From: Plicaturopsis crispa FD-325 SS-3
Lineage: Eukaryota > Basidiomycota > Agaricomycetes > Amylocorticiales > Amylocorticiaceae
Reading direction: 5' to 3'
DNA: 64,000 nucleotides
NCBI GenBank assembly: GCA_000827205.1
Contig: KN832555.1
Location: forward strand, 1,414,893-1,478,892
The notes under the pieces are model-generated. The model saw only the letters and a program-made list of their open reading frames with translations. It had not been told where the DNA came from and made no database searches. Shown piece by piece: positions 324 to 26,379 of the stretch; positions within the stretch are counted from its first letter, which is position 1; every line of letters begins with the position of its first letter. A program made the translations under genes and the position numbers.

Positions 324-1326
324 ATGCCTAAGGTCAAAAAGACATGGAGTAAAAACAGAAAACCGGTGAGCTTGTTATCTAGCACGACTTGCTCTATGAT
401 TAACCCGATATGCGGCCTCGCTCAGGTTTCGCGGATGATACGCGCCCAAATCCGAGAAATGTCAAAGACCAGCGCCCCAAAGGACGTTCTGGCTCGCTTC
501 AACATCAGCTATACTACTTTGGCGCGGGTGAAGACCGGGAAATATGCTGCTCGCGATAAGCTGGCCGAGGACGCACTGTTAATAAAGGGAACCCTTGACA
601 ATGCCATCGTCATAGACGACAGTTCGGAGGAAAGTGTCGCGGGAGAGCCCACCGGGAATTTGGGAGAGGACGAGCTCGAAGGCGATGAAGAGAACAAAGG
701 TGGCACATCTGGAGCACAGCAGGATCAGCCTCGCCGTAGCACCAGAGAGCGAAAGCGCATTAAATATGAGCCCGAGAGCGACGACGGCGAGCCACCCGTC
801 ATTGCGCCACCGCGGAGGGCGACCGTCATAGTTAAAAACCCAATCAACGGCAGCACGCGGCAGGGTCAGAGTACAAGTTCGTGTGAGTGGCCACGAACCT
901 CGCGCATATAATGACAAGTATTGATCTTCCACTGGACTAGCCTCAGCCTCGAGCTCTAGTAAACAGCAGGCCCGTGAGTTTCATCTACGTTGCCCGAACA
1001 TAGGATGCACGAGTTAATTCCATTTCTTAGCTGCATCCTCAGCCTCTACCTCCGGTGCTACCTCCTCCAGATCCGAGATGGACCCCGCCGTTCAAGAATT
1101 TTTCAAGGGCCTTGGTCTGAAAGGCCTTAGCCACCAGTTCCCCATCCTGTGCATGTTTGGATTCCGCACGACCGAGGACCTCGACTTCCACTGCATGTCC
1201 GTGAAGGACGAGGGGGATGATCATCTCGCCGATTTGGAAGGCAGGCTCTCTGCGAAGGGGATCAACGGAACCGAGTGGATGGCTATCTCGAAGGGGCTGA
1301 AACGGAGGGCGCTCTCCATGAACTAA
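324..1326 (+). CDS. Unrecognised HTH / acidic / SAM-like protein, tandem copy A
   Basis: I do not recognise this family. The model has four exons, 324-365, 426-882, 947-973 and 1031-1326, giving 273 residues. The second exon begins with a helix-turn-helix-like stretch (around ARFNISYTTLARVKTG) of the kind found in transposase and Psq/CENP-B-like DNA-binding domains. An acidic serine-rich middle follows, then a basic RRSTRERKRIKYE patch that could be a nuclear signal or AT-hook-like. The last exon encodes a compact helical block of about 82 residues starting MDPAVQEFFKGLG, which resembles a SAM-like fold by eye. The ATG at 324 was chosen because copy B has the same short basic first exon with its intron at the matching place. 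A nuclear DNA-binding role is inference only. A paralogue lies 250 bp downstream on the same strand. Confidence 0.7.
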
Positions 1327-1576
1327 TGTGGGCGTTGATGGCCCGAGTGTTGTTGTGTTCTGCTGCATAGTATGTGCCTCGGATTCATCGAGTTTTCAGC
1401 TTTTTGTGGTTTACGATCAATGTACGTACTTGACAATGACGATATAAAGCTGATTTAGGGCAATAACGCGTCCGAGTCGCAGCGCGCGCTTAATGTCGGC
1501 AGGTTCGTGTCGTGCCTCCACTAGCGAAGACTAGACCCCAGCGTCCTGCAGCTTCTCGTCCAGCTCCAGCGTCGTC

Positions 1577-2630
1577 ATGCCCAAGGATATCGTGAAGACG
1601 CTCAAACGCAGGCCCGGCAGGCAACCGTCTGTGAGTGACTTTCGTTCAATTCATCTCTGTACGCGCCTGGTGACTTCTGACAGATCTCTCGAACGAAACG
1701 GGCTCAAATCCGAGAAATGGCAAAGACCAGGTCCTACAGAGATATCGCAGCATTCTTTGGCATCTCCTCTATGACCGTTTACAGGGTGAACACTGGCAAC
1801 TACGCGAAGAAGATTGACGACCTCAACGAGGATCGACACTATTTGGATGGAACCATGGGCGATATCGTCGTGATAAACGATGATTCGGAGGACGATGCCG
1901 GGGCCGTCGGTGCGGGTGAACCTGAAGGTAGCGGCTCTGGGAACGAGAGTTTCGAGGCGAACGAGGGCGCGAAGGACGATAAGTCCCAAGTGCAGCAAGA
2001 TCAGCCTCGCCGCAGTGGCAGGCCTCGAAAGCCCATTCAATTTGATTCCAACTCAGATCATGAGGAGTCTGAGCAGCGAGTTGTGATCCCGCCACCGAGG
2101 AGGCCAATAGTCAAGGCGAAGAACCCGACCACTAGCAGGCCGCAGTCTGGTAATGCTGGCAACATGAATGCTCGTAAGCCCGCCTCGCTTAGATGTTCTA
2201 TTCACAAGTACTGACCTGGCTGAGAATTCTATGCAGATGCGGCAAGCTCCAGTCAATCCCGGGTCCGTAAGTTGCATCTCATCCGAGCAAATTGCTCCCA
2301 GATATCTAGACGTATTAACTTCCTTTCGAAGCCGCATCCTCAGCCTCCACCTCGGGTGGTGCATCCACCGCTGCATCTGATATGGACCCAGCCGTGCAGG
2401 AGTTTTTCAAAGGCCTCGGTCTAAAGGGCCTGCACCACCAGTTTCCCATCCTCTGCAAGTTTGGGTTCCGCACGACCGAGGACCTCGACTTCCACTGCAT
2501 GTCCGTCAAGGATGAAGGGGATGAGCACCTCGCTGAATTGGAAGGCAGGCTCTCTGCGAAGGGGATCAACGGGACGGAGTGGATGGCTATATCGAAGGGG
2601 CTAAAACGCAGGGCGCTGTCCATGAACTAG
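1577..2630 (+). CDS. Unrecognised HTH / acidic / SAM-like protein, tandem copy B
   Basis: This is a tandem paralogue of the gene at 324-1326, with the same four-exon plan: 1577-1630, 1684-2173, 2237-2266 and 2332-2630, 290 residues. The HTH-like part (around FFGISSMTVYRVNTGNY) and acidic middle have diverged strongly from copy A. The last exon is almost unchanged, with 4 differences in 82 residues: S/H, M/K, D/E and D/E. The basic patch reads RRSGRPRKPIQFD, and its GRPRKP core is like an AT-hook. Shared intron positions and phases show duplication of a whole gene rather than of an exon. Function is unknown; a chromatin or DNA-binding protein, possibly derived from a transposase, is a guess from the HTH and basic patch. 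Confidence 0.72.
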
Positions 2631-24686: not shown

Positions 24687-26379
24687 TCATCCATCTGAAT
24701 CCTCGGCCAGCTCATCCTCCTCGTCACTACTAGCCTGTACGCCGTTGACACGTGGAGAGACCGCGAATGCGACATGCGGCTCTTGGGAGACCTCCGACGA
24801 CCACCTATGCCCCCCAGGGCCCTCGGTGTCATAGAGCGCCTCGTGCAAACTCTCCTGATAGTCTGGATGTATCCACTCGGGGAGCTCAAACTCGCTATAC
24901 ATCTCTATCTCCTGCGGGACCTTAGTCCCAAACGCCGTTATATGCCGTTGAGTCTTGCGAGTGTTCTGCGTTCCGGAGCTCAGAATGGCTGCTTTCATCA
25001 AAACACACTCCGAGCCTCCCGAGCGTGACCGATGGTGCCCAGAATCGCTGGACCGACTGATGTGTGCCGACGCAGATTGACCATACTCTTCTTCGTCCAT
25101 GGCATCCGCGTCGTGCACAGACCGCTTCAGGCGCTTTGCAGCTCTCTTGTGGGAAATGGAGTCGGCGGGATCAGAAGAACCGTGATCTCGGGCTGGTAAC
25201 GCATAGGGCATTGACGAGGATGGTGAAGGGGATGGTCGGTGGAGTTGAGTTTTCGATGAATGTTTGACCGGTTTTGTGTGCTTTCCCGAGGCGCTGAAAA
25301 TTAATCCAGGAGCGTCTCGGGGAGGAAACTTGATCTTTAACTTGATCTTCTGGGTTTCCTTCCGAGTTATTTCAGCCACTGCTGCCTCAGAGTCCCCATC
25401 CGATCCACCGTCTCCGTGTGGCCAATGATCGCTACCACTTGCAACTACCGGCTCTGGCTCTGCAGAGACACTTCCAGCGCCGCCATATTTTTCCGCTGGT
25501 TTTCTGTCCGACGGTAGTAATGTCCGGTAGCGCTCCTCCAGACTGAACGCCACGTCAAGCATTTCTTTCCTTCGCCGCTCGCCTTCGTTATGTGTCGAAG
25601 CACCTTCCTGGCTTGTGCTGTCGTCGGCATCGTCCTCCGGGGGAGCCGGTATCGGCAGAAAATAATCATTTGGGAGGGTAAGGAACGCGGAGCCGTCCAT
25701 CGCACGCAGCTGCTCGATGCGTTCTTTCAGCTTGTATTGCTCATGCTTGAGTTTTTCCTTCTCGCGCAGCCGTTGCCGTTTCTCGAAGGTCTCGTATTTA
25801 CGGTGCCGCTTCTCGTACGCTGCATCGGAGGTGTCGGCACTCTCCTATAGAGTTTATGATAGTACGCGTGGATGCGAAAGGAGCGTCATAAAACAATATT
25901 TCACCAACAATGAGTGTACACCGGGGAGAGGAGTAGCAATGGACACTAACTTCTTCGGATCCCCTTGGCCTGAACCGTCCACCAACACTTGCGTCCTCAG
26001 AAAGCAAAGTAAATTCTGGCGTTTGGATGACCTGCTGCTCCTTGGCAGCGTTGAGCACCTCCGGCCGATCAAAATAGCGTTCGTCCCCAACGGCCTTTGT
26101 GCTTGTCTCTCCGGAAGTTGAGGGGAAAGATGGTAGGAGTAGGGAGCTGTCCGTCGTAAGCAAAAACTTTGTGTCGGCGGGTATCAATGGTTCGTTTTCA
26201 GCTGTGCGTTTCGGTATGAGATTGGTACAGAAGGCAAATGTTCGCGACGCACATTTTCTCTTGTAGGTGTCCAGGATCATCAGGTCGACATCACACGTCC
26301 CTACTCCAGGGCCACCGCGCCGAGAACGAGATGGCAAGACGCGCTTTTGACGGGGCTGCGCCTCTGGCGTGGCAGGCAT
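24687..26379 (-). CDS. Nuclear protein with PEHE-like charged segment, conserved hypothetical
   Basis: Three exons. The N-terminus MPATPEAQPRQKRVLPSRSR is followed by GGPGVGTCDVDLMILDTYKR. A 48-nt intron is removed, then ENEPLIPADTKFLLTT and RYFDRPEVLNAAKEQQVIQT. After a second intron comes a strongly charged stretch (YEKRHRKYETFEKRQRLREK, then EQYKLKERIEQLRAMDGSAF), which recalls the PEHE region of MSL1-type chromatin proteins. The rest is disordered, with Ser/Glu runs, a KIKLKIKFPP segment and an acidic C-terminus ending EDELAEDSDG. Related proteins occur across Agaricomycetes as far as I know. A role in a histone acetyltransferase-like complex is inference from the PEHE resemblance only. 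Confidence 0.7.

What the first reader, a model, noticed from the sequence alone, without database searches (positions are those of the whole stretch)
324..2630. Tandem HTH / acidic / SAM-like gene pair with a frozen last exon
Both copies have four exons at matching positions and phases. The HTH and acidic parts have diverged strongly, while the last exon keeps 78 of 82 residues. Either the C-terminal block is under strong constraint, as a partner-binding or oligomerisation surface, while the DNA-binding part diversifies, or gene conversion has homogenised the last exon. A DNA-reading head that changes on a fixed tail is the pattern expected of a diversifying regulator family. The HTH resembles transposase-derived domains. 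I do not recognise the family, and it is my best candidate for something undescribed here.
Basis: partly seen in the sequence, partly recalled or inferred. Interest (0 to 1): 0.72.

Follow-up and report, generated by a model that had tools for sequence, protein, structure and literature searches.

The report
Fungal DNA-binding gene quartet, shared tail
A fungus carries four neighbouring copies (one dead) of a small, unnamed gene that joins a transposase-like DNA-binding head to an almost unchanging tail; the tail seems to be kept alike both by strong selection and by copying between neighbours, so this looks like a small regulator family and not a fast-evolving arms-race family.

Summary
Genes A (324-1326) and B (1577-2630) each have four exons with matching phases, and 78 of 82 C-terminal residues are identical. 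Two more copies lie 11-14 kb upstream on the other strand: C, intact, and D, a pseudogene. I found no further copy in the genome.

Constraint or conversion? Both. In the A-B tail, 23 synonymous stand against 5 amino-acid-changing differences (dN/dS 0.04), so constraint is strong. Synonymous divergence is also lower there, and shared sites switch from pairing A with C in exon 2 (25 of 39) to pairing neighbours A with B in exon 4 (7 of 9), the mark of conversion, on few sites.

The head is an HTH whose predicted fold is nearest to IstA and Tc3 transposase DNA-binding domains. It is old, with dN/dS 0.18-0.37, so 'diversifying' is not supported. A basic motif and a possible SUMO-binding motif follow. 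The tail matches no Pfam or NCBIfam family; its SAM reading does not beat chance by sequence.

Most likely these are nuclear DNA-binding regulators with a shared assembly tail (inferred). No fungal comparison set was available, so novelty is provisional.

The parts
324..1326 (+). Gene A, 273 aa; exons 324-365, 426-882, 947-973, 1031-1326
   Evidence: open frame through four exons, GT..AG introns, same plan in copies B, C and (broken frame) D
1577..2630 (+). Gene B, 290 aa; exons 1577-1630, 1684-2173, 2237-2266, 2332-2630
   Evidence: as for A
432..536 (+). HTH of A (three helices, placed by alignment to B)
   Evidence: alignments; weak Pfam HTH_psq E 0.083 and 0.024, below cut-off
1690..1794 (+). 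HTH of B (helices at exon-2 residues 3-12, 18-25, 29-37)
603..635 (+). possible SUMO-interacting motif in A (AIVIDDSSEES)
   Evidence: hydrophobic core followed by acidic/serine residues, same place in A, B and C; motif consensus recalled, strict form fits C best; function inferred
1864..1896 (+). possible SUMO-interacting motif in B (IVVINDDSEDD)
   Evidence: as above
732..767 (+). basic motif of A (RRSTRERKRIKY)
   Evidence: alignment with B and C; function inferred
2008..2043 (+). basic, AT-hook-like motif of B (RRSGRPRKPIQF)
   Evidence: alignment; AT-hook consensus recalled, not tested
1078..1323 (+). conserved 82-residue C-terminal block of A
   Evidence: 78/82 identical to B, 76/82 to C; dN/dS 0.04 and 0.08
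2382..2627 (+). conserved 82-residue C-terminal block of B
   Evidence: 79/82 identical to C, dN/dS 0.02; model all-helical but low confidence (pLDDT 64.4, pTM 0.48)

Best explanation
A small family of fungal nuclear DNA-binding proteins, unnamed in the libraries searched. It sits as two tandem pairs in mirror order (D< C< ... A> B>), about 11 kb apart, with POM152 and other open frames between. Each intact protein has a short N-terminal transposase/paired-type HTH that reads DNA, an acidic stretch with a possible SUMO-binding motif, a basic motif, and an 82-residue C-terminal helical module that probably binds itself or a fixed partner. The head has diverged since the early duplication under moderate purifying selection. 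The tail stays nearly identical because most amino-acid changes are removed and because copies, above all neighbours, have exchanged the last exon by gene conversion. Shown here: gene structures, copy number and layout, purifying selection, the switch in grouping, and the HTH fold prediction. Inferred: nuclear role, DNA binding, SUMO binding, oligomerisation.
For: Four copies found, no others. Shared four-exon plan. Tail block A-B: 23 synonymous and 5 nonsynonymous differences on 52.8 and 193.2 sites, dS 0.65, dN 0.026; exon 2: dS 1.58, dN 0.50. Synonymous divergence drops towards the 3' end in all three pairs: A-C near residue 111 of A, pS 0.69 to 0.31, reached by 0 of 2000 shuffles; A-B near residue 155, 0.69 to 0.42, p 0.0135; B-C near residue 54, 0.85 to 0.46, p 0.006. 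Quartet patterns: exon 2 AC|BD 25, AB|CD 8, AD|BC 6; intron 2 6, 1, 1; exon 4 AC|BD 1, AB|CD 7, AD|BC 1; Fisher p 0.0018 (AC|BD and AB|CD, exon 2 against exon 4); best breakpoint in intron 3, permutation p 0.0003 for the AB|CD class and 0.0144 for the AC|BD class. A-B intron 3 is 66% identical against at most 58% in 12 shuffles; C-D identity is 88% in exon 4 against 61% in exon 2, although D is broken. GC3 0.77-0.84 in the tail block against 0.61-0.64 in exons 1+2. HTH model and fold rows.
Confidence: 0.55

Rival explanations
1. Constraint alone: the last exon is conserved purely by purifying selection, and lower dS there comes from codon bias.
For: dN/dS 0.02-0.08 in the block; dS still 0.41-0.68, so no recent wholesale copying; GC3 higher in the tail.
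Against: The grouping of copies switches from AC|BD to AB|CD near intron 3/exon 4, which codon bias does not predict. D is broken yet 88% like C in exon 4 against 61% in exon 2. The synonymous break between A and C lies inside exon 2, not at the exon border.
Confidence: 0.2
2. Conversion alone: the tail is unconstrained and only homogenised.
For: Lower dS in the tail; switch in grouping.
Against: With 23 synonymous differences on 52.8 sites, an unconstrained block would show about 84 nonsynonymous differences on 193.2 sites; 5 are seen (numbers).
Confidence: 0.02
3. Arms-race family: the HTH head is driven to change by positive selection, for example against mobile elements, on a fixed effector tail.
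For: Recognition-helix residues differ between A, B and C; head shares a fold with transposase DNA-binding domains.
Against: Head dN/dS 0.18-0.37; synonymous sites near saturation, so the head is simply old. Only four copies found, one dead. Site-wise tests were not run.
Confidence: 0.08
4. Decaying domesticated-transposon debris without function.
For: Transposase-like HTH; D is a pseudogene; no wider conservation could be shown.
Against: Three copies keep full frames, splice sites and strongly skewed synonymous/nonsynonymous ratios. No transposase catalytic domain in the pieces of A and B scanned. Self-comparison of 40 kb shows the gene copies, one repeat-rich open frame and one short inverted repeat, no element ends around the genes.
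Confidence: 0.07

Closest known systems
LEAFY (plant transcription factor; PMC4844672, search listing, abstract and outline seen)
   Same: DNA-binding protein with a separate small helical oligomerisation domain (SAM) that shapes where it binds (abstract)
   Different: LEAFY's SAM is N-terminal (abstract), the module here is C-terminal; no sequence relation tested or claimed; SAM identity of our tail not shown
IstA and Tc3 transposase N-terminal HTH, Pax paired domain
Pfam HTH_28 / HTH_23
   Same: B matches HTH_28 at E 2.8e-4 and HTH_23 at 0.002
   Different: Below the curated cut-offs; A matches neither, nor does C's head
SAM domains (PF00536, PF07647)
   Same: Short all-helical C-terminal module by a weak model
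   Different: Comparison with three SAM domains of the same genome by profile and by shuffled scores does not beat chance; one of the three was read through a probable insert

Membership tests
HTH_28/HTH_23 homeodomain-like HTH | profile score over the curated cut-off | tested here: not met
   B 21.3 bits against 25, and 18.3 against 24.6; A and C no HTH_28/23 hit
HTH fold (broad) | three-helix unit with turn between helices 2 and 3 | tested here: met
DNA transposase | DDE/D catalytic domain after the HTH | tested here: not met
   no catalytic domain in Pfam scans at E up to 10 of A exons 1+2, B exon 2, and the tails of A and B; of C only the head was scanned; proteins are 269-290 aa
SAM domain | match to a SAM profile | tested here: inconclusive
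   no family at E up to 10 for the tail, with HMMER's filters on; genome searches with SAM_1 and SAM_2 list other loci, not these; shuffled-score p 0.23-0.69
SAM domain | five-helix SAM fold | tested here: inconclusive
   model of low confidence, four helices (pLDDT 64.4, pTM 0.48); fold search uninformative
SUMO-interacting motif proteins | hydrophobic core next to acidic/serine residues that binds SUMO | not testable with these tools
   pattern seen at the same place in A, B and C; consensus recalled; binding needs an assay
MAT-A homeodomain mating-type genes | homeodomain, and location beside the M3-family peptidase gene (layout recalled) | tested here: not met
   these genes are not hit by Homeobox_KN; three of its five hits lie at C2 2.637-2.646 Mb near an M3 peptidase at 2.631-2.632 Mb, 1.2 Mb away

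The most novel reading that the evidence does not exclude
An undescribed fungal regulator family whose 82-residue tail is a new assembly domain. Tail homogenisation between neighbours keeps all members able to co-assemble, while the heads keep separate DNA targets, so that members form mixed complexes on different sites.
Probability: 0.15. Interest if true: 0.6.

Novelty: new variant of a known kind. Interest (0 to 1): 0.35.

Why it matters
If true, it adds an uncharacterised domain and a compact natural case in which selection and gene conversion both act on one exon, separating 'what it binds' from 'whom it assembles with'. The pieces are ordinary: HTH regulators, tandem duplicates and local conversion are all well known.

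Tried and rejected
SAM identity of the tail: Pfam, NCBIfam, PDB sequence, PDB fold and comparison with three SAM domains from the same genome gave nothing above chance. PDB fold rows for the tail (isochorismate-pyruvate lyase, mitoribosome, CtTel1) are treated as noise from a poor model. PDB sequence hits were at chance level: head E 0.59, tail E 0.73 and 1.1. Relatives of the tail in GTDB genomes and IMG/VR: 41 and 2 pattern matches, none confirmed; these collections hold prokaryotes and viruses, so they say little about a fungal gene. Mating-type link rejected. Papers: five searches, of which I saw the listed titles and abstract starts only: 15 of 41 papers, 10 of 195, 10 of 58, 10 of 238, 1 of 1; and the outline with abstract of one paper. 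None of those listed seemed to describe such a family; absence from print is not claimed. The other HTH_28 match in the genome (contig C10) was not followed after one search failed.

Full report
Setting. The window is C2:1414893-1478892 of a 33.2 Mb, 49-contig genome. Pfam matches nearby (POM152 nucleoporin and inorganic pyrophosphatase; a helicase with HA2 domains and an Alg9-like mannosyltransferase) and short introns fit a fungus. Homeobox_KN matches near an M3 peptidase gene are the layout I recall for the MAT-A locus of mushroom-forming fungi. The species was not identified.

The observation. Genes A and B have four exons with identical phases (0, 1, 1) and open frames. The last 82 residues agree at 78 of 82; exon 2 agrees at 69 of 151 aligned residues. 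Two more copies lie upstream on the minus strand. C has an open frame of 269 aa. D has in-frame stops and, against the other copies, gaps including one in the HTH region. Searches with DNA, exon 2 of B, the head of B alone and the tail of B found these four places; the only others were three weak exon-2 hits with E 0.097 to 0.31. The tool scores only its best candidates, so counts are lower bounds.

Layout. The order is D< C< (about 11 kb, with POM152 and other open frames of which three scanned had no Pfam hit) A> B>. Exon 2 and intron 2 pair A with C and B with D, as expected if a two-gene unit was duplicated in inverted orientation; exon 1, intron 1 and the flanks give no clear grouping, so this is tentative. 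Over 40 kb, self-comparison shows only the four genes' similarity, a repeat-rich open frame at 1399.6-1400.5 kb, and one short inverted repeat.

Constraint. For the 82-residue block: A-B dS 0.65, dN 0.026; A-C 0.41, 0.032; B-C 0.68, 0.016. For the HTH part: dS 1.3-2.1, dN 0.38-0.52, ratio 0.18-0.37, with synonymous sites near saturation. Both regions are under purifying selection, the tail far more strongly. D was left out of these counts because its frame is broken. In the basic part of exon 2 the ratio is 0.36-0.72.

Conversion. The bootstrap intervals of pS are 0.56-0.77 for A-B exon 2 and 0.30-0.56 for A-B exon 4; for A-C 0.43-0.63 and 0.20-0.42; for B-C 0.50-0.73 and 0.27-0.52, the last two values of B-C overlapping slightly. 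The best single break in synonymous divergence lies at about residue 111 of A for A-C (pS 0.69 to 0.31; 0 of 2000 shuffles), 155 for A-B (p 0.0135) and 54 for B-C (p 0.006), so different pairs have different tracts or the decline is gradual. In the four-copy alignment, columns with a gap were set aside and only two-against-two columns counted. Patterns AC|BD, AB|CD, AD|BC: exon 1 3, 2, 2; intron 1 1, 1, 3; exon 2 25, 8, 6; intron 2 6, 1, 1; exon 3 0, 0, 1; intron 3 4, 4, 0; exon 4 1, 7, 1; upstream 12, 5, 7; downstream 8, 6, 8. Fisher's test of exon 2 against exon 4 gives p 0.0018; the best breakpoint, in intron 3, has permutation p 0.0003 (AB|CD class) and 0.0144 (AC|BD class); the first four informative sites of exon 2 are, however, AB|CD. 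I read this as exchange of the last exon between neighbours, though not recently between A and B (dS still about 0.6). Limits: small exon 4 counts, and higher GC3 in the tail (0.77-0.84 against 0.61-0.64), which may mean codon selection or GC-biased conversion.

Mechanism. I read the family as nuclear DNA-binding regulators with a shared assembly or partner-binding tail, working like LEAFY, in which a SAM domain drives oligomerisation and affects site access (PMC4844672, abstract and outline). DNA binding, nuclear location and assembly are inference.

Verdict. The best answer is constraint plus conversion. The 'diversifying regulator' claim is not borne out. The family is unnamed in the libraries searched, but no fungal genomes could be compared.

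Noticed in passing
contig C2 1401633-1402589 (minus), outside the window: Copy D is a pseudogene, yet its last exon is 88% identical to that of C.
   Followed up: yes
window 236 and 1466: ACGCGT lies 88 and 111 nt before the start codons of A and B; C has ACGCGC at -130. The word occurs 25 times in the 64 kb window. It equals the MluI cell-cycle box (recalled); may be chance.
   Followed up: partly
contig C2 2630842-2646387: M3 peptidase and three Homeobox_KN matches close together: possibly the MAT-A mating-type locus, on the same contig.
   Followed up: no
contig C2 1399475-1400620 (minus): Ser/Thr/Val-rich open frame with internal repeats (317 nt at 91%), no Pfam hit at E 0.01; may be a cell-wall type protein.
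   Followed up: no
window 24690-25844 (minus): Open frame with weak SAS4 (E 8e-5) and PEHE (E 7.5e-4) matches, below cut-offs; possibly a chromatin-complex subunit.
   Followed up: no
contig C10 1289410-1289571 (minus): The only HTH_28 match over cut-off listed for the genome; not listed as a relative of B's head.
   Followed up: no
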